Positions 1-58,590 of a DNA stretch of 64,000 bases are shown piece by piece (position 1 is the first letter of the stretch; the number at the start of each line of letters is the position of its first letter). Source of the stretch: Amphibalanus amphitrite (Eukaryota > Arthropoda > Thecostraca > Balanomorpha > Balanidae); NCBI RefSeq assembly GCF_019059575.1, contig NW_024881567.1, positions 963,001 to 1,027,000 of the forward strand, read 5' to 3'. The notes below the pieces were generated by a model. That model did no database searches and was not told the DNA's origin. It worked only from the letters and a program-made list of their open reading frames with translations. The translations under genes and the position numbers were made by a program.

Positions 1-1995
1 GTGTCGAACAGACCTCCTACCCTCAGTTTTTCGCAAATAACTCGCGTAAAAAGCGGCTGATTGCGACGAAACTTTCAGTACCCTCGAGTTAATCAATATT
101 ACGCCTACCCTATAATTTGTATGACCCTGGCTCAAAAGACCTTTGACTTGTGATCTGTTTTCCGAGACCATGTTTGGCCGGAATCGCGTTTTGCCGAATT
201 TCGAGTAGAGCGTGTTTTATTGTCTTTTTGTGACTTTAAGCGATCAAACATGTGAAAGGATGTTGATCCCATGGATTCTAGTGGTATCAAGGTCACGTGA
301 AGGTCAGTCAGGTCACTGACCTTTGATGACCTTTGTTCACTCTTTCGAGTTCTACATGTTTCTAGGGAGGATTTTGGAGTTGATTTCGCATTTAGAAACC
401 GTTTGAACATTTAACCCGCGCGGGGCTGGGGTCTCCAGCCGAACGCGAGGGGCTGGGGGGGGTAAATTTTACCCCCCCTGTTATCTCCCGAACTAACGGT
501 CCGATTTGGAAAATTCAAACGCCAATCGAAAGCTCTCATCACGAACTACTAAAAACATGTACTTAATTTAAAGTTTGAGGTCAAGGTCAAGGTCAGGTCA
601 AGGGTACAAATTGCAAGTTTCTAAAGTATCGGCCTTGCACCGTAGTTGCCGAAGAATGGAGTCATGGACTGAGACTGATCGCCCAAAACGTGTTCTTAGG
701 CTACCAAGACAATATTCGTTGCATACAATATCATTCAGAGGTCAAGGTCAAGGTCAGGTCAGGTCAGGTCAGGTCACCAAAAAACAAAATATAGAAAAGG
801 GCATGTGCGACACATGTTTTATGGGTCATTTTACTCATAGAATTCAATAGGCACACTCAATAAGTGATATGGACCACCTCTGGATGAATTTCAGGTCGAG
901 GTCAGGTCAAGGTCAGGTCAAGTGAGGTCAAATTTTGAAGTTGGTTGTTAAGGCCTAAAAAGGTGTCTATCTGATGCAGTTTTTCACGGCGAATCGAATG
1001 GTGCTATTTTTGTTTTCGTACGAGGTCTAGAACTTCCAAAAAAGTCATTTTTCAAAAATTTTGTGTGTCGTGACGTCATAAAATTTTGAATAACTCCCAC
1101 ATTTTTGAACCGATTCTTCTAAAATTTGGTATGTAGGTGCACATAGACCACTTCTCTGACATATATTCCGTTTTTTTATAGACTCAAAATTTTGGATTTT
1201 ATAATGATTTTTCCAAAAAAGTCAGTTTTTTGAAAAAATTTAGGCCAAAATCCAAGATTTTCAAAAAACCGAGATAGCCATTTGATAGACAAAGTAAAAT
1301 TACGTATAACCTTTTTTGTTACGTCTTGATTCCTTTAAAAATGAAGATGTTAGCGGCGTTTGAACTTTTGCCGTTTTTGAGGCGAAAATGACGAACATGA
1401 CGTCACTAAAACGTCAATTTCTCAAAAATTTTCCGACGGATTTCGCTCAAATTTTCAGGGAACGTGTCAAATTGATGTAAGAAAAGGTACTGAAAGTTTG
1501 GCGGCGCTGCGCGCCGCCGTTTTTGAGATATCGCAAAAATTCGCGAGGGGGGTAAAATTTACCCCCCCCCCAGCCCCGCGCGGGTTAAGAAGTAGTTTTG
1601 GTTCCCTCGTAACATGTGACCTCACCTGACCTGACCTGGCCTAAATGCACGAAAACATCATCTGTGATCAAAGCTAACTTGAAATTCGTGATCAGCACCC
1701 CGCAAAACCCTATAACAGCTTCACTTTACGAAGCTCTAACAGGTCCCGATTCCCCGACTTTTGAGTTTGACCTGTCAACTTTGACAACTTTGTCTACTTA
1801 GACTTTTGACCTGACCTAGGACCTTAAAATTGGGTATCATCGGCCTCCTCTCGTCACGGGCAACACGCTCTTTTTCCGCAAAGCTCTAGCTCGATCAGGG
1901 GTTGAACGGCAAAGGGGTCCAACGGACGCGAAGGGACGCAACGGACGCAAAGGGGTCCAACGGACGCTGGCAAAACATCAATATGGGCGAGGATG
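1..1995. repeat. Family F TTAA-type repeat (F1), left end outside the window, split by G1
   Basis: Positions 1-416 and 1585-1995 match, in order, the two halves of F2 (23317-24195). Shared blocks include the GAATAACTCGCG-like motif, a GAAACTTTCAGTACC block, CATGACCCTG and an AGGTCA-rich centre. The right end is decayed: F2 ends CGGGCGAGGG-TTAA, but here the text around 1990 runs CGGGCGAGGATG with no TTAA. The family is non-coding, and short ORFs in it do not recur between copies. Around 1905-1965 there is a short direct repeat of GGGGTCCAACGGACGC. Confidence 0.7.
417..1584. mobile_element. Family G non-autonomous TTAA element (G1), 1,168 bp
   Basis: TTAA flanks both ends (413-416 and 1585-1588). 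The left terminus starts CCCGCGCGGGGCTGGGG and the right terminus is its reverse complement. Next to each terminus is a G-run/C-run hairpin with a TAAATTTTA-like core. Inside are AGGTCA/AGGTC arrays (575-600, 737-778, 890-930) and the palindrome GGCGGCGC-TGC-GCGCCGCC at 1500-1518. No coding capacity is visible. A near-identical copy sits at 13353-14530 and a partial reversed copy begins near 58590. TTAA target duplication fits the piggyBac or Kolobok superfamilies; the sequence does not decide between them. Confidence 0.88.
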
Positions 1996-2640
1996 AAAAT
2001 ACAGCTGCTGTCATAAAAATTCAGCTTGAATCAAAGGTCAGGCTTGCCAAATTTCAGCTCTCGCAGCTATCAATAAAAATAAACATGTGGAGGCGGCACC
2101 CTCCACCCCGCACCCGCCTCCCCCCCTCTCGGCCACTGCCAGCGAGGTTTTAAGCGTATCATACACGTTACAAAGCATCATATCAAGATGACACACCCCA
2201 GCAGCCATATGCACTGAACAAAAACTTATTACGCACGCTAGTCTATCGGCACCATAGCACATGGTATGGTCGAGACTGTCGTCAGCCACGGACGCGCACT
2301 CGACCAACCCTCTGAGCCCGTTGACTGCGGGTGACCTTGACATGTCAAGCCTGATCGGCCGCCGGCCGCTGTCGTGCGATCGTTACACGCGGAGGGGAGG
2401 GAGACACAAAGCTCTACGTTATAGCTGACCTCTGACCTTTCCCTGCGCCCTGGTCACTGACCCCGCTCCATGTCGCTGGGCGGTGGCATGGCGGTGGAAA
2501 CCGGTTCTAGCCTCTACACATGCCACCATTCTAACCCTCCCCTCCCCACGCTACTATGTACGCGGCGCGGAGTACGCTCGTGCGTAACTGGGCGGAGCAA
2601 GGGGTCACGCGATACAGGGGCGGAACTGGTTGCCCTCCCG
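1996..2640. other. Unassigned spacer, no gene recognised
   Basis: This stretch lies between the decayed end of F1 and the first recognisable reverse-transcriptase codons. It has a C-rich tract near 2095-2135 and moderate GC content. It may contain the 5' part of the Penelope-like element, but I see no motif that proves it. Confidence 0.4.
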
Positions 2641-2654
2641 CCCGCCGAGCGACC

Positions 2655-3438
2655 AACGACTAATACCCTGGAGAACCGTACAAACGGTGATGAATCTGTT
2701 ACAGGAACACAGAGAGACCATCAATTTGTTTGACCTGTCTTGGACAGACGTAGAGCCTCTTCTAAGGCACTGTCTCACCAACAGCTACCTAAGATTCGGG
2801 CAATCATTTTACAAACAAACCCTCGGGTTACCCATGGGAAACCGTATAGCCCCGTCCACCGCTATCATCTTCATGGGAGCGCTGGAAGACATTTATTTGT
2901 CTGCAAACCGCGCTCAACCAGAACTGTACGTACCTGCGCTACATCGATGACTGTTTCTGTGTCTGGTCACATGGTTCGGAGGAGCTCTCAGCTTACTTCG
3001 AATATGTCAACTCGGTTCACCCCAAGATCAAATTCACCATCGAACGTTCCGACGCAACCAGTCCTCGGGGACAAATAGCATTTTTAGACACGCAGATCAG
3101 CGTGCACCAGAGCGGGCACTACAAAACGCAGCTTCATATCAAACCTGAAGCTGCATCCATCATCCTTCCTTTTGACTCGGCCCAGCCGTTCAAAACTAAA
3201 AAGTCGGTCGCTAAGTCCCAATTTCTACGAGCCCTGAAGGTTTCGTCAGACCCACAGAGCGCTAAGCGCAGCACTGACATGATATTTGACTTGTTCGTGT
3301 CCAACGGCTACCCTCCACGCTGGCTGCACGGGATAGCGCGTCAGGCTCTGAAACAATACAACAGACAAAAGTATCCGACAGCTAACCGCACAAGTGACCG
3401 TAGTCACACAGGAGCCCATCCCAAACGTAGGGATAGGA
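2655..3438 (+). pseudogene. Penelope-like element PLE1, reverse-transcriptase part (frameshifted)
   Basis: The translation carries the C-terminal half of a Penelope-type RT. It shows YKQTLGLPMGNRIAPSTA (the GLPMG palm motif), then after a frameshift near 2925-2935 RYIDDCFCVW (catalytic YxDD), then HPKIKFTIE and FLDTQI, which are typical of this family downstream of the YxDD box. The 5' part is missing or unrecognisable. The frame runs to 3438, where an hAT-like element interrupts it, and resumes in the same frame at 9883. The frameshift and the missing N-terminal RT motifs make this a dead copy. In a live element the protein would prime reverse transcription on nicked chromosomal DNA. Confidence 0.8.
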
Positions 3439-4720: not shown

Positions 4721-5868
4721 TCCTAACTGAAATCTGAGAGCGAACGATAATTATAAGCACAATCATAAGCAATTCAATTGTGCATCTTTTGCTTGCGGAA
4801 GGTCGCAACCGGTATCCAAACCAAGGTACCTATAAGAAACATCAAAACTAGGGTGACTTGACTTGGTGTGTTGTCATGTTCAAGTCGTTCCTCGATTCAG
4901 ATTTAGGCAGTTAGTTGCGGTGTTAATCCTACACACGTGCGGTCTGAGGTTCTAAGCACGGCCACCCCGGTCGACCGCAGGCCGCAGCCCACAGGTCAGT
5001 TTGTATCAGTGAGTGAACCTGGAGACAACTTCTTGCAAATAATGTGTCCATGGTTGATCAACGTATATTTTACCGTCTCGTATTAGCATACATGCGTCTT
5101 ATAAAAATGTTCGTAGCCTGAGTTCGTTTACTATATCGTGCTTAACCCGCGCCGTGCTGGTGGTCTGAGTTTTCTGTGGAGTGCTGGGGGGGGGGGGCGT
5201 TTTCACGCCCGCTGTCTAACTCGGCTCCTGGGCAGTGGGCCATGTAGCGACACGCAGTAAGTGACTTCGAAGGAGCGTAAAAATAATGAGGGAAATACAA
5301 CGGTCATTTGTAGGTCAGAGGCCAGTTTTACTAACAGAAAAGTAGCCGCCTGCCAGAATTTTTTTACTAGGCCACTTCACATACGGTAAAGCCCTATCCG
5401 CTTACGTGCCCATCGCATTTACGCTCCGTATGTGAAACGGTCTTTAGGCAAACAATTCCGGCAGGCGGCAATTTTTCTGTTGGTAAAACTGGTCTCTAGT
5501 CAAAGGTCAGGTCGCCAGAGATCATCAAAAATCAAATTTTGCATATTTCAACATTTTTGAAAAACCGGCGCATAACTTGGGAACCAATACAGCTACGGCG
5601 CCGCAGAACAGCGCATTCCATAGCCCTTTTAGCGGTCTTTCTTGAATTTGTCCTCTGATTTGACCTCAGGTCATTAGTTTAGCCGCCAGATGGCAAAAAC
5701 TCCAAAAATAGCCGTTCTTGCGATGTTTTTCGGTAATAACTTTTGGCGTAAGAGTCACGATATTATTTTTCCCAGCATCGTGTTCCTCTCGTCGAGCCGC
5801 GTCAATTTAACTATAATTTGATCTTGAAAAGTCATTCGGAAAATTTGACCCCAGGTCAAGGTCATGAC

Positions 5869-8800
5869 CAGTGGCGTATCCAGGATCTTGAAAAGGGGGA
5901 GGCCAAACCTGCTCAAGGGGCCCCACCCTTACCTGAGGGGCCCCAGAGGTAGAATACTTAACCCACGCACAGGTGCGGTTCTTTGCCACTTTCGCCATGT
6001 GAGGGAGCCTTTTTAGGCACACTTGGCAATCTAAAAACTCTGAAGGCTCATTCTGGCCTCTGAAAGCCTCTCTTCGGCAACAGAGTGAACGACTGGCCTC
6101 AGCCGGCCCCATAATGGCATCAGGAGACCCATACTATTGCTGACCTGCCAGGGCCCCACGCTGGCTCTTGGGAGCCTTTGAGTCAGTCTGATGACCCTAT
6201 GCCGCTCTCGAAACCACGCCGGTCGCTAGAAGCCCATGCTGCCCTCTGAGGGTTCCGCGCCGGCTTCTAAGGGTCAAGCTCCTACCTCAAGGAACTCAAA
6301 CATGCATAAGATCTGAAGAATGGCTGCTGAGGCCCTCGAAGTGGCTCTAATGGCCCGACGCCAGCCTATGAAGGCCCCGTGCTGGCTTCTGAGGGCCCAG
6401 CACCAGCGTCTGAAGTCAGATGACAGCTGGCCCCACGCTGGCCTCAGAGGGTTCACACTGGTCACAGAGGGCCTCACACTGGCCTCAGAGGGCTCCACAT
6501 TGACTTCAGAGGGCCCCAAGCTGGTCTCAGTGGCCAGTGGGCCTCAAACTGACTTCAGAAGGCCCCACGCCGCTGGGCTTAGAAGACCCCAAACTGGACA
6601 TAGACAGCCCTACACTGAACATGAGGGTCCCACACTGGCCTTAGAAGGCCCCACAATGGACTTAGAGAGCCCCACGCTGACCTTAGAGGGCTCCACGGCT
6701 GGCCTTAGAGGGCTGCGCGCTGGCTCCTTAGGGTTCCACGCCAGCGTCAAAGGGTCCCACCCACGCCCAAGTCTAAGCTTCTCGAGGACCGCCGAAGCGG
6801 CCTCTGAGTGCCCCCACGCTAGCCTCTGGGGCTCGGCCTCAGCTTCTGAGGGCCCTGAGACGGCCTATGAGGGCCCTACGCCGGCCTCTGAGGGCCATCA
6901 AATGGTAAAATTAAGATAGTTTGACGTAGTTGACTTTATTTAATGACTTAATGACGTAATGACTTTATTTAAGTTTGGGCCAGTACTTCGGATAAGGCCC
7001 TGAAGGTCGTTTCTCTTGGGACACCCAAGCATGCACGTACCCAGGATTTCGCCCAGGAGGGGTCAACCTGCTCTCGAAGGGGCCCCGGGTTACCTGGGGG
7101 CCACTGACGACCCAGGCAGGGACGTATCCAGAACATTTCGATGGGGGGGATTGGGCACAGTGGGTCCGGTCCCCCTTGCGGACGGGTCCCCTCTGTCTGT
7201 CTGTCTCACTGTCTGCCTGTCTGTCTGTCTGTCTAAGCCCTGAGAAAATGTGGAGAATTGGCAGATAAAGTATCATTTTGCCTGAGCAATGTGCTTAAAA
7301 TGCACGGTCTTTTATGAAGAAGCGAAGCGAGCGAGCCCGTCAGAGTCGCCGGTGTTGGTCCCTCAGATTTGTCTGCGGAAGGCCGTCAGATGTGCTGGTG
7401 TGGGGTCCACACAGGCGCCGGTTGTGGGGCCTTAGGGCTTAGAGACGCTGGTAGGGGCCGTCATAGGCATGTATGGGGCCCTGAAAGTTACTAGTGGCCC
7501 TTCATAGGGTGGCAAGGGAACCTCAGATGCCGGTAAGAGGCCCTCAGAGTCGCTAGTAAGTGACCGTTAGATGCGCTGGTATAGGGCCCTCGCAGGCGCT
7601 GGTGAGCGGGCCTTCAGAGCCGCCGATGTAGGCCGTTAAGAGGCGCTGGTGTGGGTCCCTTAGAAGTGGCGGTGAGGGCCCTCCCAGGCGCCATTCTGAG
7701 GGCCCTCAGAAACACTGGTGTGGGCCGTGGGGGCATAACAAACATGTGTGGGGCCCTTACAGCTGATCTCTCATTAGCCTTCAAGGACCCTCAGAGACCG
7801 GCAAGGTCCTTCAGAACCTGGGGTGGGGCCCTTCTGGAGATAAGTGTGGCTACATAAGAGCCCATGACGTGTCCTCAAAAGCCCCGTGGTGTCCTTTCAC
7901 TCCTTTCCAGTTGAAGCGTGACCAGCGCGGACCCTCTGATGTCAATTGGCACCGTAGGGCCCCTCGGGCCCGAGGTGACCCTAAACCATATAACGGACAC
8001 GTGTCCCCTCGCCCCCTGGCTATGCCATTGAATCCAAGTGATCAGGGGCCCTTTAGGTAATCAGGGGCCTCTCAGGTGACTGCAGGGGCTTTTCAATTGA
8101 CCAGGGGCCCACCAGGTTACTGTAACCAGGGGACCCTCTGATAATCAGGGGCCGGTTATACCAGGGGCTCCTCGGGCAACTAAGGGCCTTCATGTGACTG
8201 CAGGAGGTACTCCCGGGTAAACATGGCCCCTCAGGTGACCAGGGCTTCTTCAAATGACTGGCCAGGGGCCATCCAGGGGTCAGTGGCCCATGCGTAACTA
8301 GGGGCCCCTCAGATAACCAGGGGCCCCTCAGGTAACCAGAGGCCCCTCGGGTAACCAGGGGCCCCTCAGGTAACCAGGGGCTCTCGTAACCAGGGGTCCC
8401 TTACCAGGAGTCATTCAGATAACCAGGGGTCCCTCAGGTAACCAGGGGTCCCGTGACCACGGCCCCTCAGGTAACCAGGGCCCCTCAGATAAACAGGGGC
8501 CCCTCGGATAGCCAGGGGTCCCTTAGACAACCAGGAACCTCTCAGACAACCAGGGGCCCCTCAGATAACCAGGGGCCCCTCAGGTAACTAGGGGCTCGTC
8601 AGATAACCATGGACTCCTCAGGTGACCAAGGGGACCCTCAGGTAACCAGGGGCCCCTCAGATAGCCAGGGGCTCTCAGGTAGTTAGGGGCCCTCTGTGTT
8701 CGTCACTGTGATAAATATCGCTCTTTGATATTAGTTTTTCTTCCGAGTAAAAGACGTTCTGTCTGGTACTGGAATTAAGACAGGGAGACCCAAAACGCCT

Positions 8801-8960
8801 TCGTCACGCTGGTCCCCCCGAGTTATCCTTGGACCTCAGGGGCCCCCGAGGCCCCCTTGGGTACGTCACTGCACTCAAGTGACCCAAAGGGCCCACTTGC
8901 ATGTCTGATCCCAAAGGGGGAGGCCATGGCCTCTTGGCCTCCCCCCTGGATACGCCACTG
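5869..8960. mobile_element. hAT-like non-autonomous element, 3,092 bp, copy a
   Basis: The 8-bp duplication GTCATGAC flanks it exactly (5861-5868 and 8961-8968). The 16-bp terminal inverted repeat is CAGTGGCGTATCCAGG. The interior is repeat-derived: GGCCTCAGAGGGC-like units (6400-6890), a CTGTCTGT run (7190-7235) and a GGGGCCCC minisatellite (8290-8690). No transposase is encoded; a 199-codon ORF at 6320-6919 is made only of the repeats. An inverted copy of the same length lies at 27317-30408. Internal stretches resembling other hAT ends (7030-7060, 7120-7150) are shared by both copies, so the composite structure predates their spread. Confidence 0.93.
8285..8695. repeat. GGGGCCCC minisatellite of the 3,092-bp element (copy a)
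   Basis: About twenty tandem units of roughly 19-20 bp carry the core AACCAGGGGCCCCTCAG. The GGGGCCCC palindrome recurs in most units, with variants such as GGGGTCCC. The same array in reverse complement occupies about 27582-27990 in copy b. Confidence 0.85.
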
Positions 8961-9882
8961 GTCATGACGTGACCGAAATAGGTCATGTTGCATATCCGTC
9001 GATCCGTATCGTTGAGCTGAACACACCTGAGGTGTTTTCACCGGTCTAGCATGTTCCTATCAAAAGTTATTGTCAAAAAACTGCCGGGGACCTTTCATTA
9101 CCTGAGACGACCTCAGGGGCACACAGAGGGGTTCATGGGTGCAAATTTTCTTATTCAGTGTGTTGTGTTTACCCATAAGCCGATGTTTGAGAGTGTTTAG
9201 AACGATGTACGTCCAAAAGAGGCGCATTTAAATTTTCTCCCGTTGACTTTACCTATAATGGGGAGGTCGCCAAATTGACCTGACCTTAGGTCACAGATAT
9301 CGAAATACAACGAAATACATCTTATACATACCTACCTACTTTTACTCTTTTCAATCGCTGAAAGTTTCAAAACGATCCTTCATTCGGTGTAGCTATAGCG
9401 AGCATTGAAACTTGTTCCATGAGATAAGGTGATAAGGTCACTTGAGACCTGGTGACCTGACCTTGAAAGAACCGTGTTTGAAATTTTCACATGTGCAGAA
9501 AGGGTGTATAAACAGGTGTGCCAAAAGCGGCGGCGCGTAGCGCCGCCGTTTTTAAGATCTTCGCGAAACACCTGAGTGGGGGGGGGGGGGTAAAAACGCC
9601 CCCCTAGCACGGCGCGGTATCCCTCAAGATGAAGACTTAATGGATTAAAAAAAAAATGGACTGCAGATTGCTTTCAATGGATGTTATGAAAACCCAGCGA
9701 AACCTGGCTCTTACACTCGTATTTCGAAACACCTATTAATTCAGGCATAAACAAAACGTTGACGTTACATTTTAGACTGACACCTCTGTCACTAGCTGAC
9801 AATGGCGCCCCACTCAAGGGAAAAAGTCGCCCCCCGCGAGCACCATGGCCCCCCCTTTTGCTGATTTCTGGCTACGCCACTG

Positions 9883-13310: not shown

Positions 13311-13352
13311 GGTCGGTGTTTTTTATATATAAATACATTTATTTGCCTTTAA

Positions 13353-14530
13353 CCCGCGCGGGGCTGGGGTCTCCAGCCGAACGCGCGGGGCTGGGGGGGG
13401 GGGTAAATTTTACCCCCCCCCCTGTTATCTCCCAAACTAATGGTCCGATTTGGAAAATTCAAACGCCAATCGAAAGCTCTCATCACGAACTACTAAAAAC
13501 ATGTACTTAATTTTAAGTTTGAGGTCAAGGTCAAGGTCAGGTCAAGGGTACAAATTGCAAGTTCCTACAGTATCGGCCTTGCACCGTAGTTGCCGAAGAA
13601 TGGAGTCATGGACTGAGACTGATCGCCCAAAACGTGTTCTTAGGCTACCAAGACAATATTCGTTGCATACAATATCATTCAGAGGTCAAGGTCAAGGTCA
13701 GGTCAGGTCAGGTCAGGTCACCAAAAAACAAAATATAGAAAAGGGCATGTGCGACACATGTTTTATGGGTCATTTTACTCATAGAATTCAATAGGCACAC
13801 TCAATAAGTGATATGCACCACCTCTGGATGAATTTCAGGTCGAGGTCAGGTCAAGGTCAGGTCAAGTGAGGTCAAATTTTGAAGTTGGTTGTTAAGGCCT
13901 AAAAAGGTGTCTATCTGATGCAGTTTTTCACGGCGAATCGAATGGTGCTATTTTTGTTTCCGTACGAGGTCTAGAACTTCCAAAAAAGTCATTTTTCAAA
14001 AAAATTGTGTGTCGTGACGTCATAAAATTTTGAATAACTCCCACATTTTTGAACCGATTCTTCTAAAATTTGGTATGTAGGTGCTCATAGACCACTTCTG
14101 TGACATATATTCCGGTTTTTTCGATAGACTCAAAATTTTGGATTTTATAATGATTTTCCCAAAAATGTCAGTTTTTTGGAAAAATTTAGGCCAAAATCCA
14201 AAATTTTCAAAAAACCGAGATAGCCATTTGAGAGACAAAGTAAAATTACGTATAACCTTTTTTGTTACGTCTTGATTCCTTTAAAAATGAAGATGTTAGC
14301 GGCGTTTGAACTTTTGCCGTTTTTGAGGCGAAAATGGCGAACATGACGTCAGTAAAACGTCAATTTCTCAAAAATTTTCGGACGGATTTCGCTCCAATTT
14401 TCAGGGAACGTGTCAAATTGATGTAAAAAAAGGTACTGAAAGTTTGGCGGCGCTGCGCGCCGCCGTTTTTGAGATATCGCAAAAATTCGCGAGGGGGGGT
14501 AAAATTTCCCCCCCCCCAGCCCCGCGCGGG
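13353..14530. mobile_element. Family G TTAA element (G2), 1,178 bp
   Basis: TTAA lies at 13349-13352 and 14531-14534. It has the same termini, AGGTCA arrays and palindrome (14446-14464) as G1. The two copies differ mainly in homopolymer G/C run length and scattered substitutions. Orientation matches G1. Confidence 0.9.
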
Positions 14531-15332
14531 TTAATTCAACTCTTTGTATTTTTAACTTAACTGATGGACATATATGGGCTGTAAAAGCTAATCTGGTTGG
14601 CGATCATGCTTTATTCGAATTATCTGCGTGATCGTGCAACTGCCATGATTGTTATGGTCAATGTGGAAATATTCGTCATACGGGCATGTTATACCTACTT
14701 CTGGCTTGATGCGATGCACAAAACCATGTTCTTCCACATACGCAGCAGTTCTTGCTTCAAAGACTTATATGCTGACGGTGCACGATAGGTATGCCTTATA
14801 CCTCATGCATTTACCACATCCATTCGAAAATATGCACTTGGAATTGTCTCCAGTCAATAGTATTAATTACATACTACGTGATGTAGGTACGTGACCGTAA
14901 TAAATACTAATGATTCCAGAAACTTCCGAATGGATGTGGTGTATGCATTCATCGATTATATAACCCATCAGTATTTCGTTTCTTGTCAGCGCAAGCCTTT
15001 GAGCAATAACTGATGCCAGTCATGATTTTGTGCACCACTTCCAGCCAAAAAATGACCTGTCCGTATAGAAAATATTTCCTGAATCAGTATCGTGGCAATT
15101 GAAAACGAACGCGAATCGTAAGTTCTTAAGGTTATCAACGCAAACAAAGCGATTGTAAGGAAGAACAAGTTCGAACTGAGCGTTAGTACACTTACTTGTT
15201 GACAATTTGTAAACTAGCAATGCCCAGTCAAAGGCTAGTTCATCAACAAACCAGGGGTTGTTGAACCGACAAGGAAACGGCTATGCCTATCCAGAAGTTG
15301 GTAGGTTCACAAGGCCCAGACTAGTACTCAAC

Positions 15333-19703: not shown

Positions 19704-20405
19704 TTAACGAACTTCAACGGAAGTGAACTGCAAAAACGAACTTCAACGGAAGCTAACTGCAAACATGTTATCAAGGTCGAGAAACGCAAGACAATGCATT
19801 TTCATTTACAATGCCAAATTCTATCGTAAATTTGCTGTTTTTTCGACATTCTCGAATTTTTACACGCCAGGATAGGCAGTCGCTGTGGGGCCCCTTTTGG
19901 CTGACCTCCGGGCCCTTCTCGGCTGTCGCCCCCCCTGAGCGAAATCCTGGATACGTGCCTGAGGTACAGTCACTCTCCCGCCGACCAATCAGAGACAGAT
20001 CCTGAGTGATGTCACCCCTGATGCTCGCAAGGGGTGCTCCATTCCTTTACAACGTAAAAACGACTAATTTCATTTGAAAATTGTTGGTGACACTGTTAAC
20101 ATATCGCTCAACCGTTGATGTCATTGGAAAGTCCAACTAATTTTCTAGCGATAAAAAAGAGCAGCAATATGCTAAGAAATGGCCGGTTTTGAAGATATAC
20201 ACGATTTAAAAATCCCCTGCAGTTGCAGGAAAGCAACGTAAAAACGCATCGAGCTTATATTTTTACTATGAATAAATCATTTTTCAGTAAGTCTTTAGAA
20301 ATGGTATCGATTTAATCAACAACTTTATTACAATATTTTTATTACTTGTAACTTTATTTCAAAATAATATTTTCAAAAATGGCAACTGTTGGCAAGTAGC
20401 TTTAA

Positions 20406-24195: not shown

Positions 24196-24354
24196 TTAAG
24201 TGACCTGGATCTGAAATTTTAACAGCATATGTAGAAAAGGTATATGATAAGGTATGCCAAAAACGGCGGCGCGTCGTTTTTGATATATTCGCAAAATATA
24301 CCGCAGGGAGGGGGTGTTCAACCCCCCCCCCCCTTCCAGCAGGGCGCGGGTTAA

Positions 24355-33363: not shown

Positions 33364-33366
33364 AGA

Positions 33367-35156: not shown

Positions 35157-35627
35157 TTAAACTAAGTATCGTTCTGTAGGAAGACGACCGAATCAACACG
35201 AATGATGTTTTATGTCTTGTTTTTGTGAAGTGTGTGATGTGCATCGACTGATACCCTGCATCGACTGCTTGTATATTTATGTCAGCATGTAATTGTGTAC
35301 TTGTCAATCTTAACACTGAAGATGACTTTGAATAAAGTCGAAACGTTTGAAAATGGATAAAGCAATTTTATGTCATAAACCTAGTTGGATAGTGTGACAA
35401 AGAGCTGTTCTAGCTGGCCTGGCACCACAAAGGGCAGCGCCATCGGTATATGATGGGCACAGCACGTGATATTCCAACGGTGGCCCCAAACAGCAACAAT
35501 TTCTAGTTTGACCTGACCTGGGAGGTCAACGATTGACCTAATGAGGAAAATTAGGTACCATTGGATTTGTCTTTTCCCCACAAATCTGTTGGTCTTTGCC
35601 GCGAAGCTCTATCTTCAGCAGGAACGA

Positions 35628-39999: not shown

Positions 40000-40018
40000 C
40001 ACTCAACACACATAAAAC

Positions 40019-43000: not shown

Positions 43001-44936
43001 CACGATGACCATAGCATATTTAGTGCTGAGTTGATAGCCATTCACTCAGCACTCAAATATGTCTCGTCGAAAAACATAGAAAAGGCTGTGATCTGCACAG
43101 ACTCAGCTTCATCGGTAAAGGCAATAGCTCACAGAAAAATGGAAAAAAAACGAAATCGTTTATAAAATAAAAAAGATGATTATTGGCTTTACCGATGAAA
43201 ACAAACACGTCATTCTCCTGTGGATTCCGTCCCACGTTGGAATACAGGGGAATGAAAAAGCGGACAAGCTAGCCAAAGAAGGTCTTCATCTCCCATCTCG
43301 AAATCATCTCGCTCTCCCCCTTCCGGATTTTCTGTCTTCGCTCTTCCGTGCCTTCCAGAGATACCGCCAAAAATGCTGGATAGCTGATCATACACCACAT
43401 CTCTTCTCCATTAACCCGCGCCCCGTTGGGCTCTGCCGAGCAACGCGCCCCGTTGGGGGGGGGGGCCATTTTGGCCCCCCCCTAAGATCTCGAGAACCAC
43501 GCAACGTAGCGACAAGCGGCAAACGGTGTTGGATAGCCCTATCAGGGAACTACCTTGTGACCCAATTTTATTGACCTAGGTCAAACCGATGACGTCACAG
43601 GTCAGGTCAAAGGTCCAATTTTCACCGTTTACAGGCATTTCAAGAAATGCGTTGTAAAATCGAGTAAAATGCATTTCATTGAAAATCATCGATGGGGAAA
43701 TGTTCTTCAAACACATATTTTGCTAGTTGAGGTCACTGATACCAGGTCAGGTCACTGAGGTCAGGTCACTGGGGGGTCACAATATGAAAGTGTCGTGCGA
43801 TACATGTTTTATGGTCAATTTTACATGACAAATGCGATTATGTGGGTCAGGCAGCCTTTGGGGCCAGCTTAGGTCACGTTTTGGTCAAGGTCAGGTCAAG
43901 GTCAGGTCAAGGTCAGGTCAAATAAGGTCAAATTTCAAAGTTGATATTTTTGCATAAAATGGGTATCGAATCGATGCAGCTCGTCACGGGGAGTTCAATG
44001 GTGGTCTTTGTTTTGCCGTACGAGGTCTAGAATCGCTAAAAATTGAGTTCAAAAATTTGACGTCATCATTTTTGAACAGTTTTTTCGCTATAACTTGGCC
44101 AAAAAACGAGATATCGATCTGAAATTTGGTATGTATATAGAAGAGCGCAGGGACTATCACATATATTCCGGTTTTTTCGAAATTCGGAAAAATTTTGGAT
44201 TTTTTTTTAGTTTTTCTAAAAAAATCAATTTTTTGAAATTTTTTGGGTCAAAAACCCAAAATTTTGAAAATCCGAGATAGCAGTTTTGTAGCGCCGCTTT
44301 TTATCTATTAGACCATATAAAGAACTTTGAAATTGCTTGATACCTGTAGATTTGGTGAGCGTTTCAAGATTGCATGTTTTTTGCTCATTTTTGCTCGAAC
44401 ATGACCTCAGTTTGACCTCAATAACTCCTGACCTAAGGTGACCTAAGACTTGAAATTTGGTGTGAAGGTGTCAAATTGATGCCCGGAAAGGTACTGAAAA
44501 TTTGGCGGCGCTGCGCGCCGCCGTTTTCTTGCTATTCAGGAAAAACCACAGGGGGGGCCAAAATGGCCCCCCCCCCAACGGGGCGAGGGTTAAACCGAAA
44601 CTTTGCCATTTCTACTCTTCCCATCAAAACACAAGGATCAAAGAGAGAGTCCTAGCCAGGCTCCGGCTCGGCCACACCCAACTCACCCACAGCTACATCC
44701 TGGACAGAGCACCTCCACCCATATGCCACCACTGCCGCGACCACCCACGCTACACCATCTCACACTTCCTCCTCCACTGCCCACACCTACACCAACACCG
44801 CAGACATATAGTACAATACATTAGCACACATGGACTCTCTCTCGACCTTCCGACTCTCCTGGGCGACACTCATCCGGATATCCACGACCTTCTGTTCGTC
44901 TTTCTCGCCGACGCTCGGATCATCAAGAGCCTTTAG
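40019..44936 (+). pseudogene. ORF2 (AP endonuclease, RT, RNase H) of the same non-LTR retrotransposon, broken
   Basis: AP-endonuclease motifs: LQWNTSSL, AAIQETHF (Glu), LILGDFNAHHRSWGS (Asp-Asn), FSDHYPI (Asp-His). RT motifs: GPDQIAYPFFKNL, SYRPISLTS, FIDFQNAFDKV (catalytic Asp), GLPQGSVLSPTLF, FADDVAIW (FADD). RNase H: YIYTDGS, FSAELIAI, CTDSASSVKAI, WIPSHVGIQGNEKAD, completing the D-E-D-D set. The C-terminus has CHHCRDHPRYTISHFLLHC. Breaks: a frameshift near 40362, one at a T7 run near 41107, a stop TAA at 42098-42100, one at an A8 run near 43143, and TTAA element H1 (43415-44589). Domain order with RNase H suggests the I/R1/Jockey group. All domains are present, so this was recently full length. 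Confidence 0.88.
43415..44589. mobile_element. Family H TTAA element H1, 1,175 bp, inside ORF2
   Basis: TTAA lies at 43411-43414 and 44590-44593. Termini are CCCGCGCCCCGTTGGG and CCCAACGGGGCGAGGG. The hairpin core is CCATTTTGG on the left and CCAAAATGG on the right. The palindrome GGCGGCGC-TGC-GCGCCGCC is at 44504-44522. An AGGTCAAGGTC array lies at 43875-43925. Removing it restores FSIKPKLCHFYSS in the ORF2 frame. H2 (57439-58590) is a close relative. Confidence 0.9.
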
Positions 44937-47106: not shown

Positions 47107-47114
47107 TTCCTCTC

Positions 47115-47355: not shown

Positions 47356-47476
<121 letters not shown>

Positions 47477-47620
47477 CCGTCCGTCTGTCCATCTCTTTGT
47501 CCGTCTCTCCGTCCGTCCGTCCGCCCTTCCGTCTCTCAGTCCGTCCATCCATCCGTCCGTTTCTCCATTCTCCGTCCGTCCGTCTCTCCGTATGTTCGTC
47601 CGTCCGTCTATCTGTCTCCC

Positions 47621-48774: not shown

Positions 48775-48778
48775 TTAA

Positions 48779-49968
48779 CCCGCGCCCTGCTGGGGGTCCT
48801 GGATTTCCACGCCCTGCTGGGGGGGGGGGGTGTTTGAACACCCCCCCCTTGTAACTCGGCTCCTGGGCCACGTAGCGATACGCGGAAGGCGGCGTTCGAA
48901 AGAGCGTAAAAAATAATGACGAAATCACTTCGGTCAATTTTTTGGTCAGGACAAAGGTCAGGTCACCAGAGGTCATTGAAGGCAAAATTTCGCCGATTTC
49001 CAGGTCGAATGTCGAAATTTTCCAAGAAGCCAACGCATAACTCGGGAACCAATAGAGCTACAGCGCTGCGGAAAAGCGCATTCGATAGCCCTATTAACGC
49101 CCTTTCTGAGTAATTCTCTCAGATTTGACCTAACGTCAACGGTTTTGCCTGCAGGGGGCAAAAACTGCAAAAATAGCCGATTTTTTCGAAAACAGTTTTT
49201 CTGCAATAACTTTTGACCCAAGCCTTGTACGAGCTTACTTATACCGGCATCGTGTTCCTCTCGTCAAGACGCATCGAATGAACTATGACTTGACCTTGAA
49301 AGGTCAACTTGAAAATTTGACCTCAGGTCAAGGTCATGACCTGACCGGAAAGGGTCATGTTGCATATCAGTCGATCCGTATCGTCGAGCTGAACACATCT
49401 AAGGCGTTTTCATCGCTCTAGCATGCCTCTATCAAAAGTTATTTGCGAAAAACTGTTAGATACCATTCGTGACCTAAGATGACCTCAGGGCATAAACAAG
49501 GGTCACGGACACCATTTTCAAGTTCAGTGTGTCTAAACCACTTGTAATTCGGTGTTTGGAAGTGTTTATAATGTCTTTCATCCAAAAGAGACGCATTTCA
49601 ATTTTCTCCCATTGACTTATAATGGGGAGGTCGCAAAATTGACCTGACCTTAGGTCATCGATATAAAAATTCTGAGATATACATTTTGTACATGCTATTG
49701 CTCTTAGCAATCGCTGAAAGTTTCAAAGCGATCGGTCACTCGGTGTAGCTATGACAGACATTGAAAGTTTTTATGAGGTGAGGTCACTTCAAGTGACCTG
49801 GTGACCTGACCTTGAATGACCTTGGTCTGAAATTTTCACAACATGTGTAGAATTGATGTATGATAAGGTGTACCAAAAACGGCGGCGCTCCGCGCCGCCG
49901 TTTTTGAGATATTCGCGAAAAACCACAAGGGGGGGTGTTCAAACACCCCCCCCCCAGCAGGGCGCGGG
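48779..49968. mobile_element. Family D TTAA element D2, 1,190 bp, reverse orientation
   Basis: TTAA lies at 48775-48778 and 49969-49972. It is reverse complementary to D1 from end to end, with the palindrome GGCGGCGC-TCC-GCGCCGCC at 49881-49899. It lies only 4 bp from the last 17 bp of C, so it inserted almost at the terminus of C. Confidence 0.9.
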
Positions 49969-49993
49969 TTAAAAAGTGAACTATTTCCTTTAA

Positions 49994-50698: not shown

Positions 50699-51005
50699 GA
50701 CCCCCCCCCCCCCTCGCGTTTGGCCCCTGATTGAGCTAGAGATTCGTGGAAAGAACGAGCGTGTTGCCCGTAAAGAGAGCAAGCCAATGATGCCCAATTT
50801 TAAGGTCCTAAGTCATCGGATGACCTCCCAGGTCAGGTCAATGACCCAAAAGTCGGGAAAATCGGGACCTGTTAGAACGTCGTAAAGGGTGGCTGCTATG
50901 GGGTTTTTCGGGGCGCTGATCACGAATATCACGTTAGTTTTGATCACAGATGATGTCTTTATGCATTTAGGCCAGGTCGGGTCAGGTCAAGTCAGGTCAA
51001 CCAGT
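50699..51005. repeat. Family F fragment F3 (reverse orientation)
   Basis: It matches the right third of F2 in reverse complement: the C-run hairpin remnant, GATTGAGCTAGAG, AACGAGCGTGTTGCCCGT, AATTTTAAGGTCCTA, ACCTGTTAGAACGTCGT and the final AGGTCGGGTCAGGTCA array. TTAA termini are missing. Confidence 0.75.
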
Positions 51006-51007
51006 AC

Positions 51008-52590: not shown

Positions 52591-53160
52591 GTTGCCACCA
52601 CCCCCGCGTCATTTCGTTCCTGTTGGAGATAGAGCTTCATTATAAAGATTTCCAGATTCTTTAAGAAGAGACAAACCCAATGGTACCCAATTTTATCTCA
52701 TAAGGTCAATCATTGACCTTCCAGGTCCGGTCAAACTAAAAAATGTTGCTGTTTAGGGCCACCGTTGGAATATAACGCGCGGTGCCCATCATATACCGAT
52801 GACGCTGCCGTTTGTGGTGTCAAGCCAGCTAGAACAGCTCTTTGTCACACTATCCGACTAGGTTTTTACTGGCTGTGGTCATTTGAGGTCAGGTTAAGTC
52901 AAGGTGAATATGTGTTTGTATGCCTGTGTGTGTCTGTGTGTATACTGATGTGTGCACCGATTGGTTTGTGTGTCCCCATTCGATGTCTCCAGAACCGCTG
53001 CGCCGATCGTCACTAAACTTTCAGTACCCTCCCCACATTGCTCCAACACACGGTAAATAACTTTTGAAAATACCCATCTCCAATTTTGGTGTTTTCTGAA
53101 CCAAAATTTTGCGAGGAATCCGATGGTGTGGTCCCCGAAATCTGAAAAATTTCCATTTTG
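52570..53160. repeat. Family E fragment E3
   Basis: It has the E-family order: GGTTGCCACCACCCCCGCG hairpin, TTGGAGATAGAGCTTC, AGGTCAATCATTGACC, CATATACCGATGACGCTGCC, a TGTGTGTCTGTGTG run (52926-52942) and CTTTCAGTACCCTCC. The start abuts M1. Confidence 0.7.
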
Positions 53161-55459: not shown

Positions 55460-55675
55460 CTCATAACTGAATACATTGCGCGAATAGCCGTGTCGCCCCC
55501 ATGGAGGATACGAGGAAACGACGTAAGACTTATGCCTTAGAATGAGACGGGAGCGGAACGAGGGGAGGGACGACGTGGATCAAGCTGGTCCTTCCCACCT
55601 CCGTACCTATTCCCAGGTGGGTGACGGCACGTGATCGCCTGAGGCGGTGGGGGGTAAAATATTTTCGTCATTTAA

Positions 55676-57160
55676 CCTTCGCCTCAGTGGGGGGTGGACA
55701 TATGTTACCACCCTGTCGCGTTTTTTTTTGCGTGTGAATAAAAAACCGCGGCGCTACGCGCCGCGCCGCTTGGGGTAGCTTTTGGTACATCAATTTTGGA
55801 CAATGTGTGAAATTTTTGACCCCAGGTCATGTCAGGTCAGGTCACCAGGTCAAGTTAACTGACCAAGCTTAAAAAAGTTTGCAATCATGTCTAGCCTGCA
55901 GTGTTTGTCAGAAAGGTTTTAAACTTGGTGAATTGCATGATGTTATGGGCGCCTACAATTTGTATATCTCGGATATTTTATATCCGTGACCTAAGGTCAG
56001 GTCAGTGGCGTGACCTTTCCATTACAAGTCAATGGAGAAAAATGAAAATGCCTCTAGATCCGTGTGTATGCATAGGAACAGTCCAAATATTTCAGAATCA
56101 CAATGATTTGGAACACTAGTGATGACCAAGGTGTCATTTTTGCTGATAGCCTCTAGAAAGGTCATCCGAGGTCATTTGAGGCTACAAACAGATTTTTGCC
56201 AATAATTCGCGATTGGAAAGAGATAGAACGCTGGGATGATCTCATTGTGTATGTCTTGCTGAGACACATCGACTGATATGCAACATGACATTTTCCGGTC
56301 AGGTCATGACCTTGACCTGAGGTCAAATTTTCAAGTTGACCTTTCAAGGTCAAATTATAGTTCATTCGACGCGTCTCGGCGAGAGGAACACGATTCTGGC
56401 AATAGAAATGTCGTGGCTTTTTGTAGTCAAAAGTTATTGTCGAAAAACACTTTTCGTAAAAACAGCTATTTTTGGAGTTTTTCCCTCTGGAGGCTAAACC
56501 GTTGACCTAAGGTCAGTTTTGATAATAACCTTATCAAAAGAAGTTTAAAAGCTATCGATTGCTTTTCCATGCGTTTTTCTAGCTACCATAGTTCCTGAGA
56601 TCAGGGCTGCGGAGTCGATGGATTTACGGCGACTCCGACTCCGACTCCGACTCCGGCTTTCAAAAACCAACTTCGACTCCGACTCCGACTCCGGGCAGAA
56701 ATGTCGACTCCGATCGACTCCAACTCCCGACTCCGACTCCGCACACCTGGCAGGGCTGCGGAGTCGACAGATTTTCGGTGACTCCGACTCCGACTCCGGC
56801 TGGGGTTTCCAATATCGACTCCGACTCCGACTCCGACTCCGGTCACAACTGTCGACTCCGACCGACTCCGACTCCGACTCCGACTCCGACTCCGCAGCCC
56901 TGCCTGAGATAACGGCATGTTTTCTGAAAATATAATGACCATTAGCAAATTGTGACCTTTGATGACCTCTGGTGACCCCAATATTACTCTAAGATGAAAA
57001 ATGGACTAATACTTTCAAGCGTACGCATTGAGAGCTATCGACTGCTTTTTACCGCGTCTTTCTAGTCCTCTTAGTTTTTGAGTTAGATGTGGGTGGTAAC
57101 ATATGCCCCCCCCCCCCCCCACTAGGGCGAATTTGGCTGAAACCGCCACTGGGGCGCGGG
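55676..57160. mobile_element. Family S TTAA element, holding R2
   Basis: The left end is TTAA at 55672-55675 followed by CCTTCGCCTCAGTGGGGGG. The right end reads CCACTGGGGCGCGGG then CTAA, one base off TTAA. The palindrome GCGGCGC-TAC-GCGCCGC is at 55748-55764. The body follows the D order, including the GTCATGACCTTGACCTGAGG and GAGAGGAACACGAT blocks. Confidence 0.7.
56602..56902. mobile_element. hAT-like MITE R2, 301 bp, a fused double unit with GACTCC arrays
   Basis: The 8-bp duplication CCTGAGAT lies at 56594-56601 and 56903-56910. Outer ends are CAGGGCTGCGGAGTCG type, as in R1. An extra copy of that terminus lies inside at about 56753, so two units share one pair of duplications. GACTCC arrays fill most of the rest. 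Confidence 0.88.
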
Positions 57161-57163
57161 CTA

Positions 57164-57241
57164 ATGCTCAACATTAGGGAGACCCGCATATCGGCGTTCA
57201 GAGGGACCGTCAAGAAATACTTGAGCATGGCGCGGCGGTGA
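57164..57241 (+). pseudogene. C-terminal tail of a non-LTR reverse transcriptase
   Basis: 26 codons read NIRETRISAFRGTVKKYL and end in a stop. This resembles the last residues of the RTs at 35790 (PLAVREQPPGAFKRNVK) and 22840. The rest of the element is not adjacent. From 57242 to 57434 its probable 3' UTR continues with TAAGTGTCTTTT repeats. Confidence 0.45.
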
Positions 57242-57438
57242 ACGCACATATATGTACGCACAGGAGCAAGGCCCCACAGGAGCTTTTATTGTGATCTTAG
57301 CGCGTCCACTTTTGTTTTACATGTTTTAAGTGTCTTTTACCCATATCGTGTCTTTTACCGGTTAAGTGTCTTTTGCCCATATTTGATAATGTTGACGCGA
57401 GCACATGAAAAAACAGTGATTGTCTGGATGAGCTTTAA

Positions 57439-58590
57439 CCCGCGCCCCGTTGGGCTCTGCCGAGCAACGCTCGGCAACGCCCAACGCCCCCCCCCCCCAA
57501 CGGGGCGTTGGGGGAGGGGGGCAATTTCTCCCCCCCCTTAAGACCTCGAGAACCACGCAACCTAGCAACAAGCGGCAAACGGTGTTGGATAGCTCTATCA
57601 GGGAACTAACTTGTGACCAAATTTTATTGACCTAGGTCAAACCGATGACGTCACAGGTCAGGTCAAAGTTCGAATTTTCACCGTTTACAGGCATTTCAAG
57701 AAATGCGTTGTAAAATCGAGTAAAATGCATTTCATTGAAAATCATCGATGGGGGAATGTTCTTCAAACACATATTTTGCTATTTGAGGTCACTGATACCA
57801 GGTCAGGTCACAGAGGTCAGGTCACTGGGGGGTCACAATATGAAAGTGTCGTGTGATACATGTTTTATGGTCCATTTTACATGACAAATGCGATTATGTG
57901 GATCAGGCAGCCTTTGGGGCCAGCTTAGGTCACGTTTTGGTCAAGGCCAGGTCAAGGTCAGGTCAAGGTCAGGTCAAATTAGGTCAAATTTCAACGTTGA
58001 TATTTTTGCATAAAATGGGTATCGATTCGATGCAGCTCGTCACGGGGAGTTCAATGGTGGTCTTTGTTTTGCCCTACGTGGTCTAGAATCGCTAAAGATT
58101 GAGTTCAAACATTTGGCGTCATATTTTTGAAGTTTTTTCGCTATAACTTGGCCAAAAAAAAAACGAGATCGATCTAAAATTTGGTATGTATATAGAAGAG
58201 CGCAGGGACTATTACATACATTCCGTTTTTTCGAAATTTGGAAAACTTTTCGGATTTTTTGAGTTTTCTAAAACAATCAATTTTTTGAATTTTTGGGGGT
58301 CAAAAAACCAAACTTATGAAAATCCGAGATAGCAGTTTTGTAGCGCCGCTTTTTGTCTACTAGACCAATTAAAGAACTTTGAAATTGCTTGGTAACTGTA
58401 GATTTGGTGAGCGTTTCAAGATTGCATGTTTTTTGCTCATTTTTGCTCGAACATGACCTCAGTTTGACCTCAATAACTCCTGACCTAAGGTGACCTAAGA
58501 CTTGAAATTTGGTGTGAGGGTGTCAAATTGATGCCCGGGAAGGAAATGAAAATTTGATGAACCAAATTGATGCCCGAAAAGGAACTGGGG
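57439..58590. mobile_element. Family H TTAA element H2, right end lost
   Basis: TTAA at 57435-57438 is followed by CCCGCGCCCCGTTGGG, as in H1, with an expanded terminal CCCAACG/CGGGGCG palindrome. The body matches H1 in order and orientation, including the AGGTCA array at 57950-57985. The right terminus and GGCGGCGC palindrome are replaced by reversed G sequence from about 58590. Confidence 0.8.

What the first reader, a model, noticed from the sequence alone, without database searches (positions are those of the whole stretch)
417..58590. AGGTCA arrays: nuclear-receptor half-sites dispersed by a TTAA super-family
Families D, E, F, G, H, I/J, L and S all carry clusters of AGGTCA in direct repeats, often as TCAAGGTCA (the extended NR5A/ERR-type site) or overlapped as AGGTCAGGTCA. 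Examples: 575-600, 737-778, 13685-13720, 23640-23660, 34110-34145, 43875-43925, 57950-57985. The rest of the elements diverges far more than these words. Established knowledge: AGGTCA is the consensus half-site of RXR-class and orphan nuclear receptors. Inference: the elements may use a host receptor for expression or targeting, or have seeded receptor-responsive sites.
Basis: partly seen in the sequence, partly recalled or inferred. Interest (0 to 1): 0.7.

Follow-up and report, generated by a model that had tools for sequence, protein, structure and literature searches.

The report
Evenly spaced AGGTCA clusters in transposons
A group of cut-and-paste transposons in this animal genome carries the same short regulatory word, AGGTCA, in clusters about one nucleosome apart, and this arrangement tends to stay while the DNA between the clusters changes, which suggests that the mobile DNA may rely on how the host packages it.

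Summary
AGGTCA/TGACCT occurs 250 times in the window against 29.6 expected, the highest ratio of any hexamer. 222 lie in 16.1 kb of TTAA-element territory (7.7 expected), 28 elsewhere (21.5 expected). Words are kept whole more often than same-composition CpG-free controls: 163 of 226 against 167 of 449.

The new finding is spacing. Clusters recur every ~166 bp (SD 12.6, n=12), no random placement matched (0 of 2000), and the DNA between is nearly all unrelated. A ~165-bp comb appears in 20 further stretches. TGACGTCA (63 seen, 3.7 expected) keeps the same register in 24 of the 26 cases with a cluster nearby; 37 have none. Full-length piggyBac copies carry such ends and clusters around a transposase gene; three gene-less derivatives keep 6-7 words each.

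The receptor reading is partly supported: suitable host receptors exist, but the extended NR5A site is a minority and no single dimer spacing dominates. Gene-less copies keep the clusters, so a role in transposition is likelier than a promoter. I favour host factors between phased nucleosomes; transposase-binding repeats are the main rival. Binding was not tested; species unknown.

The parts
411..1588 (+). TTAA element A1 (1178 bp), matching ends TTAACCCGCGCGGGGCTGGGG, no frame of 150 aa or more; clusters only in its left half; TGACGTCA at 1071 and 1398 stand near two phase positions that lack AGGTCA
578..600 (+). AGGTCA cluster 1 of A1 (4 words)
739..776 (+). AGGTCA cluster 2 of A1 (7 words), centre 168.5 bp on
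899..930 (+). AGGTCA cluster 3 of A1 (5 words), centre 157 bp on
13349..14534 (+). element A2, 97% identical to A1; clusters 13522-13544, 13683-13720, 13843-13874
48775..49972 (+). element B2 (1198 bp); six clusters centred at offsets 190, 353.5, 541.5, 702.5, 873.5, 1026.5
33966..35160 (-). element B1, 97% identical to B2; clusters 34116-34157, 34281-34298, 34453-34468, 34596-34647, 34807-34812 (one word), 34963-34990
35374..35631 (-). fragment next to B1, related to the fragment at 52595-52975; cluster 35509-35539
43411..44593 (+). element C1 (1183 bp); clusters 43572-43609, 43730-43768, 43871-43930, 44402-44444; TGACGTCA at 43590 and 44058
57435..58556 (+). element C2, 91% to C1 (right limit is that of the BLAST match, no TTAA there); clusters 57628-57665, 57786-57824, 57927-57986, 58454-58496
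23313..24199 (-). element E1 (887 bp; orientation by likeness of its left end to the right end of the other families, my reading); clusters 23472-23491, 23632-23675, 23837-23852, 23996-24015
3..1927 (+). E-like element (3-413 and 1617-1927) split by insertion of A1; clusters 290-332, 1617-1637, 1768-1817
5142..9617 (+). B-like element F in pieces (5142-5318, 5499-5869, 8960-9617), split by a hairpin insert (5319-5498, seen by eye) and a 3,095-bp insert (5869-8963)
18014..19707 (+). B-like element G with the shorter TTAA element H (18323-18888) inside; cluster or single-word centres 18161, 18315, 18487, 18733, 19076, 19225, 19409, 19565
55672..57010 (-). element J (71% to B2) with five clusters 55824-56515 and one at 56953-56968 beyond a CGACTC array (56602-56888); outer limits uncertain
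16277..16990 (+). element K1; clusters centred at offsets 174, 334, 541, 691; right limit uncertain
31362..31967 (-). fragment related to K1 (31618-31967) plus flanking repeat; clusters 31712-31727, 31914-31925
50707..51006 (-). fragment 91% identical to part of E1; clusters 50821-50840, 50984-50999
52595..52975 (+). fragment related to K1 (78%); words at 52703-52719 and 52886

Best explanation
The AGGTCA clusters are a cis-acting module of one lineage of piggyBac transposons and of gene-less elements with the same kind of ends. They sit about 166 bp apart in the gene-less elements and ~187 bp apart in part of the full-length element, so each gap has room for about one nucleosome. My proposed mechanism: host factors that read AGGTCA (orphan nuclear receptors such as NR5A, ROR or NR4A), and at some positions a TGACGTCA-reading bZIP factor, occupy the linkers. 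They hold the element as an open, regularly phased nucleosome array in the germ line or early embryo, so that the transposase can reach and bring together the two ends. Shown: the module, its spacing, its conservation in most pairs, its presence in full-length piggyBac copies and its retention in three of their derivatives. Inferred: that host receptors bind it, that nucleosomes are phased by it, and that this helps transposition.
For: Enrichment is confined to these elements. Words outlast their surroundings. Centre spacing is 166.3 bp, SD 12.6, n=12 in A1, B2, C1, E1; phase coherence is 0.876 at 169 bp, with 0 of 2000 random placements as high. A comb at ~165, 330, 500 and 665 bp appears in 20 other 10-kb stretches, on same and opposite strands. 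At first order it also stays after masking related copies (20 pairs in phase; jittered null 8.4 +/- 2.6, maximum 18 of 2000). Element ends are in phase too (TTAACCC: 32 pairs in phase, 8 off). TGACGTCA is 63 against 3.7 expected: 14 within 30 bp of a cluster, 10 at 135-200 bp, 2 at other distances up to 265 bp, 37 with no cluster that near. Full-length L039/L042 encode a piggyBac transposase (PF13843 E 2.2e-69; T. ni piggyBac structure E 2e-78) between clusters of the same kind. Derivatives in L010, L014 and L027 keep both ends with 7, 7 and 6 words and match no part of the gene. Near clusters GGGTCA is the commonest one-base variant (43), then ACGTCA (33, of which 28 are accounted for by the 14 nearby TGACGTCA, each counted twice); the other sixteen are 0-15. 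This fits the RGGTCA receptor consensus (recalled). Three host DBD exons have P-boxes CEGCKG, CESCKG and CEGCKG.
Against: No binding or nucleosome data exist here. Edge-to-edge gaps run from 102 to 161 bp, leaving out two long ones; several are shorter than a 147-bp core. A1 has clusters only in its left half and C1 lacks two in the middle. The GC profile that would favour nucleosomes between clusters is weak (+0.029 +/- 0.010 mid against edge) and the 10-bp AA/TT signal is not clear. No single receptor spacing dominates and the extended site is a minority. After masking related copies the later peaks are weak. 37 of 63 TGACGTCA have no cluster near them. In L039/L042 part of the array is a real tandem repeat of ~187 bp (2.3-2.4 copies), so the spacing may be inherited from unit duplication. 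E0b-E1, K1-Y and (by whole words) K1-K2 show words no better or less conserved than other sequence.
Confidence: 0.42

Rival explanations
1. The clusters are transposase-binding subterminal repeats: the transposase (for example its C-terminal cysteine-rich domain) binds AGGTCA/TGACGTCA, and the match to host-factor words is a coincidence.
For: Subterminal arrays bound by the transposase are known: piggyBat carries three binding sites on its left end (PMC11707139, passages). Gene-less derivatives keep the clusters, as binding sites should be kept. Seven other piggyBac elements in the same genome (L029, L030, L033, L034, L035, L037, L038; L033 and L034 are close copies) have 0-4 words each and one close pair in all, so the words go with one transposase lineage among those read.
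Against: In B-type elements the clusters run right through the 1.2-kb body, not only near the ends; A1, with clusters in its left half only, is less telling. The end palindromes, the expected CRD sites, differ between families while AGGTCA does not. Two different words, both canonical host-factor sites (recalled), share the register. Spacing, number and orientation of words inside a cluster vary.
Confidence: 0.27
2. The clusters are the last recognisable box of an old tandem repeat (unit ~165-187 bp) that the ancestral piggyBac acquired; they persist through unit duplication and conversion, without any role in chromatin.
For: In L039/L042 part of one side is a true tandem repeat of 187 bp with GACGTCATAACTCCG followed by TGACCT words. 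One pair of B2 intervals shows inverted similarity (score 40; best of 100 shuffles of the same pair 25), and one C1 pair equals its best shuffle (25). A profile of four L039 units also matches, above threshold, other sample stretches (L013, L021, L023, L024, L027, L028) and one place in the window. Pokey elements carry 200-bp repeats taken from rDNA spacers (PMC3849761, passages).
Against: The other interval pairs in A1, B2, C1 and E1 are no more alike than shuffles. The single above-threshold window match (44413-44555, E 2.6e-5), and those in L013 and L028, lie at element ends, that is, in the shared terminal part; the ones in L021, L023, L024 and L027 (1918-2074) I did not place. Decay alone does not explain why the words stay (163/226 against 167/449).
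Confidence: 0.17
3. One reading: receptor sites serve as promoter or enhancer for the transposase (or for host genes), as with NR5A2 sites in mouse SINE B1.
For: Exact AGGTCA words; host receptors of the right class are present; clusters lie on both sides of the transposase gene in L039/L042.
Against: Derivatives without the gene keep the clusters. The authors of the Pokey paper reason the other way round: repeats that the non-coding derivatives lack are likely transcriptional (PMC3849761, passages). The extended NR5A site is a minority and no single dimer spacing dominates.
Confidence: 0.1

Closest known systems
piggyBac superfamily (T. ni piggyBac, piggyBat)
   Same: TTAA target, CCC-starting ends, DDE transposase with cysteine-rich end, palindromes near the ends
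   Different: Evenly spaced AGGTCA/TGACGTCA clusters along the element; I saw none described for piggyBac or piggyBat in the passages read
CMITEs of Acropora corals (PMC2872659; abstract and two sections read)
   Same: TTAA-flanked, piggyBac-related non-coding elements whose internal part is more conserved across families than the ends; the authors suggest a role in transposition
   Different: About 100 bp long with one 75-bp conserved block; no periodic word array is described in those sections
Pokey and mPok of Daphnia (PMC3849761; passages)
   Same: piggyBac of an animal (a crustacean) with ~200-bp internal repeats and internally deleted derivatives
   Different: Pokey repeats come from rDNA spacers and are absent from the non-coding derivatives; here the derivatives keep the clusters
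NR5A2 sites in mouse SINE B1 (PMC11102866; passages) and DR2 elements in Alu (PMC1785376; title and start of abstract in listing)
   Same: Host receptor half-sites spread by transposable elements; NR5A2 can bind nucleosome entry-exit sites
   Different: Those are retrotransposons with one or a few sites (recalled); here a DNA transposon carries up to six clusters in a nucleosome-length register
Hermes (hAT) ends read by BED zinc fingers (PMC10368747; start of abstract in listing)
   Same: Contacts of the transposase well beyond the tip of the element
   Different: Other superfamily; the sites are read by the transposase itself

Membership tests
piggyBac superfamily | TTAA at both ends | tested here: met
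   A1, A2, B1, B2, C1 and E1 have TTAA at both limits; C2 not at its BLAST-limited right edge. L039 and L042 have TTAACCCTCGC / TTAACCCTAGA ends
piggyBac superfamily | ends begin CC(C/T)T (rule as quoted in PMC2872659) | tested here: inconclusive
   L042, E1 and K1 ends begin CCCT (met); A and B ends and the left ends of C begin CCCG, the right end of C1 CCCT
piggyBac superfamily | transposase with DDE_Tnp_1_7 domain | tested here: met
   P0002 from L042, 646 aa, PF13843 E 2.2e-69; T. ni piggyBac 6x67 E 2e-78. Met for L042 only; not found in the 10 of 30 window frames scanned
piggyBac superfamily | C-terminal cysteine-rich domain | tested here: met
   the alignment to 6x67 runs to residue 638 through the Cys-rich stretch in the L042 copy
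Gene-less derivatives of L042-type piggyBac | ends derived from the full-length element, gene region missing | tested here: met
   L010, L014 and L027 keep ~300 bp of one end (92-93%) and ~400 bp of the other (84-98%), in 2183, 946 and 956 bp
Gene-less derivatives of L042-type piggyBac | same for window families A, B, C, E | tested here: inconclusive
   same kind of ends and clusters, but bodies not alignable to L039; a right-end profile match for C1 only
Classical nuclear-receptor response element | AGGTCA pairs at DR1-DR5 or inverted spacing | tested here: inconclusive
   same-strand pairs at steps 5 (49), 6 (20), 7 (5), 8 (3), 9 (3), 10 (31), 11 (19); DR4 and DR5 pairs are abundant but can arise from tandem runs
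NR5A/ERR monomer site | TCA in front of AGGTCA | tested here: not met
   met in a minority only: 34 of 250 have TCA, 14 not preceded by AGG; 8 of 169 first words
Nuclear-receptor binding site in general | bound in vivo by a receptor | not testable with these tools
   no ChIP, DAP-seq or expression data; host receptors exist
Phased nucleosome array | clusters in linkers of positioned nucleosomes | not testable with these tools
   spacing fits; GC trend weak; no MNase data

The most novel reading that the evidence does not exclude
A DNA transposon that carries its own chromatin plan: receptor-type and CREB-type sites placed in successive linkers, one nucleosome apart and in register with the transposon ends, so that every new copy is packaged as a standard open array. 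Thousands of copies would then write this register, and clusters of host-receptor sites, across the genome.
Probability: 0.3. Interest if true: 0.85.

Novelty: new variant of a known kind. Interest (0 to 1): 0.62.

Why it matters
If the register is real in chromatin, these elements are a natural test of whether a transposon can set nucleosome positions in its own favour and use host receptors for transposition rather than for transcription. One 23-base cluster sequence alone occurs 6,042 times in the 807.6-Mb assembly, against 1 for the same pattern read backwards, so the elements could also have laid down thousands of receptor-type site clusters. Ten literature searches showed me, in the titles and abstract starts listed, no report of such an array.

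Tried and rejected
Satellite or tandem-repeat artefact: TRF on the window, the 20 sample stretches and L042 gave 12 rows of period 120-220. Only L042's holds several words (5); two hold 1 each and the other nine hold none. So the comb is not made by recognisable satellites.

Homology between intervals as source of the spacing: pairwise local alignments against forward shuffles gave one clear exception (B2 intervals 1 and 2, inverted, 40 against 25) and one tie (C1 intervals 1 and 2, 25).

A second recurrent word (ATAACTC): enriched (57 against 24.3) but not clearly in phase, so not part of the claim.

Ordinary piggyBac elements as source: seven with TTAACCCATTAG-type or TTAACCCAGATC ends lack clusters. 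The flanks of a 58%-identical transposase (C778, L044/L045) have clusters on one side only, and its ends were not found, so I do not use it.

Species: not identified. A barnacle was my guess from recall; the barnacle assembly sizes that I saw (770, 613 and 482 Mb and a small partial one) do not match 807.6 Mb.

A genome-wide count of cluster pairs at chosen distances did not complete.

Full report
Observation. The window is eukaryotic: it carries LINE-type reverse transcriptases and lies in an 807.6-Mb assembly of 2,644 contigs at G000:C70:963001-1027000. AGGTCA and its complement occur 250 times against 29.6 expected from dinucleotides, the highest ratio of all hexamers. By BLAST of the window against itself and by the ends TTAACCC(G/T)CGC I drew a territory of 16,125 bp of TTAA elements. 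It holds 222 of the 250 words (7.7 expected, 100 shuffles, maximum 15); the rest of the window holds 28 (21.5 expected). The limits of this territory were set by hand from those two sources, in places a little beyond the matches.

Conservation. I aligned 16 pairs of element stretches. Word bases agree in 1676 of 1795 cells and other bases in 14040 of 17223. Words do better than the rest in 29 of 32 directed comparisons; E0b-E1 (both ways) and K1-Y (one way) go against. Counted as whole words against other hexamers, 5 of 32 go against: the same pairs, K1-Y both ways, and K1-K2 one way (0.57 against 0.58). The clearest case is B2 against J: 99/100 in words, 433/680 outside. As a control for mutability I repeated the test on 13 of the 16 pairs (A1-A2, B1-B2 and J-Gb left out) with CpG-free hexamers of the same composition: whole words kept 163 of 226, against 167 of 449. 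The pairs share members and are not independent.

Spacing. Distances between words on the same strand in the window fall at 0-60 bp, almost none at 60-120, then peaks at 140-180 and 300-360. Grouped into clusters, the centres in the representatives A1, B2, C1 and E1 are 166.3 bp apart (SD 12.6, n=12; one 522-bp step in C1 left out of this mean). Phase coherence at the best period (169 bp) is 0.876; 2000 random placements with at least 100 bp separation never reached it (mean 0.305, maximum 0.838). The first cluster lies 168-190 bp from the left end in A1, B2, C1 and E1 and 164 bp in H. The last lies 154-195 bp from the right end in B2, C1, E1 and H, but 674 bp in A1, whose right half has no cluster. 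The DNA between clusters shows almost no repeat: one interval pair (B2 1 and 2, inverted, score 40; best shuffle 25) is clearly more alike than shuffles and one (C1 1 and 2) equals its best shuffle.

The comb is not peculiar to the window. In 20 stretches of 10 kb taken at one fixed position on contigs 1-20, AGGTCA is 410 against 90.7 expected (rank 4 of 2080). The distance histogram shows peaks at ~165, 330, 500 and 665 bp, on the same strand (134 in 160-180 against 19 in 80-100) and on opposite strands (54 against 4). After masking everything similar to earlier pieces (221,279 of 264,000 bases left, 295 words) the first peak stays: 20 cluster pairs at 145-190 bp, against 8.4 +/- 2.6 with jittered positions, maximum 18 of 2000. 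The later peaks are then weak; duplicates inside one piece were not masked. Recognisable tandem arrays do not explain it.

A second word in the same register. TGACGTCA occurs 63 times in window plus sample (repeated window copies dropped) against 3.7 expected. 14 lie within 30 bp of a cluster of two or more words, 10 of the rest at 135-200 bp, 2 at other distances up to 265 bp, and 37 have no such cluster within 265 bp. With the repeated copies kept, the distance histogram has 15 pairs at 0-20 bp, none at 20-140, 28 at 140-180. In A1 the two TGACGTCA (offsets 661 and 988) stand close to where clusters would be expected (about 670 and 1004) but AGGTCA is missing; in C1 one stands at offset 648. 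Other words that lean to the register are single AGGTCA (35 pairs in, 33 off; chance would give about 0.59 to 1), AAGTCA (23, 18), AGTTCA (15, 9) and the element ends (TTAACCC 32, 8). Among the 18 one-base variants of AGGTCA, GGGTCA is the most frequent close to clusters (43), then ACGTCA (33, of which 28 are accounted for by TGACGTCA counted on both strands); the other sixteen are 0-15.

What the elements are. The genome has 116 scored piggyBac transposase (PF13843) matches, a lower bound. I read 13 of these loci. Seven lie in elements with TTAACCCATTAG-type or TTAACCCAGATC ends that hold 0-4 scattered words each and one close pair in all; for five (L031, L032, L036, L040, L041) I found no element ends. 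One, L039, has ends of the window type, 3,975 bp apart, with 12 words, five close pairs, four TGACGTCA and a piggyBac frame. L042 is a 99.2% identical 3,971-bp copy with an open transposase frame, 13 words, six close pairs and four TGACGTCA. L043 is a third copy, with a C-type element next to its end at a shared TTAA. The protein (P0002) matches PF13843 (E 2.2e-69) and T. ni piggyBac 6x67 (E 2e-78) including the cysteine-rich end. In the sample, L010, L014 and L027 hold copies of 2183, 946 and 956 bp that keep ~300 bp of one end and ~400 bp of the other end of this element, match no part of the gene, and hold 7, 7 and 6 words and two TGACGTCA each. In L039/L042 part of the array is a true tandem repeat of 187 bp, 2.3-2.4 copies. 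The bodies of window families A, B, C and E do not align to L039 in the BLAST, so their derivation from this very element is not shown.

Mechanism. A derivative without a gene gains nothing from a promoter, so what it keeps is likely used in cis for moving. The Pokey authors use the same logic in reverse (PMC3849761, passages). The palindromes inside the G/C runs near both ends differ between families (for example TAAATTTTA, TGTTTGAACA, CCATTTTGG). In piggyBac and piggyBat such palindromes are bound by the transposase's cysteine-rich domain (PMC11707139, passages). AGGTCA, by contrast, is the same in all these families. This favours a common host reader for AGGTCA and a family-specific transposase for the palindromes; it is inference. 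AGGTCA is the half-site of many nuclear receptors and TGACGTCA the site of CREB/ATF factors (recalled). The genome has 77 zf-C4 exon matches. I read three: nearest solved structures are ROR-gamma (L046), NR5A2 (L047) and NR4A2 (L048), with P-boxes CEGCKG, CESCKG and CEGCKG. No single dimer spacing dominates, DR4 and DR5 pairs are abundant but can come from tandem runs, and the NR5A extension is a minority, so monomers or clustered binding would be needed in many cases. Gaps between neighbouring clusters average 141 bp (66 intervals, chosen within 105-175 bp, so partly by construction) and are slightly more GC-rich in the middle (+0.029 +/- 0.010). This fits nucleosomes between clusters but is weak; NR5A2 prefers nucleosome entry-exit sites on the 601 nucleosome (PMC11102866, passages).

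Verdict. The elements are a piggyBac lineage and gene-less elements of the same kind. The even, nucleosome-length register of AGGTCA and, in part, TGACGTCA is the surprising part. I give 0.42 to host factors in linkers of a phased array serving transposition, 0.27 to transposase-binding repeats, 0.17 to a decayed tandem repeat, 0.10 to a promoter role. It is a new variant of a known kind; the nearest published parallel that I read is the CMITE group of corals.

Noticed in passing
window 5869-8963 and 27314-30408: Two 3,095-bp copies in opposite orientation that are 100% identical, each with 19-bp minisatellites and a TTAACCCACGC word; a very recent element or an assembly duplication.
   Followed up: no
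window 56602-56888 and 55368-55429: CGACTC/CGGAGT hexamer arrays; the first sits between two AGGTCA clusters of element J, which without its ~287 bp would be ~165 bp apart.
   Followed up: partly
window 5319-5498: A ~170-bp insert with inverted ends (seen by eye) next to an AGGTCA cluster of element F.
   Followed up: no
window 1500, 44504, 49881: A GGCGGCGC..GCGCCGCC hairpin followed by T's 88-91 bp from the right end of A1, B2 and C1.
   Followed up: no
window 59062-62892: Open 1276-aa LINE frame with endonuclease, reverse transcriptase and zf-RVT domains.
   Followed up: no
window 32190-34000: Two 99% identical inverted 611-bp stretches (32209-32819 and 33359-33969) inside frames that look like Penelope-type RT/GIY-YIG (my reading; no Pfam match for the one frame scanned).
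   Followed up: no
G000, many contigs: zf-C4 and piggyBac matches often come as equal-scoring pairs on different contigs, as if the assembly kept both haplotypes.
   Followed up: no
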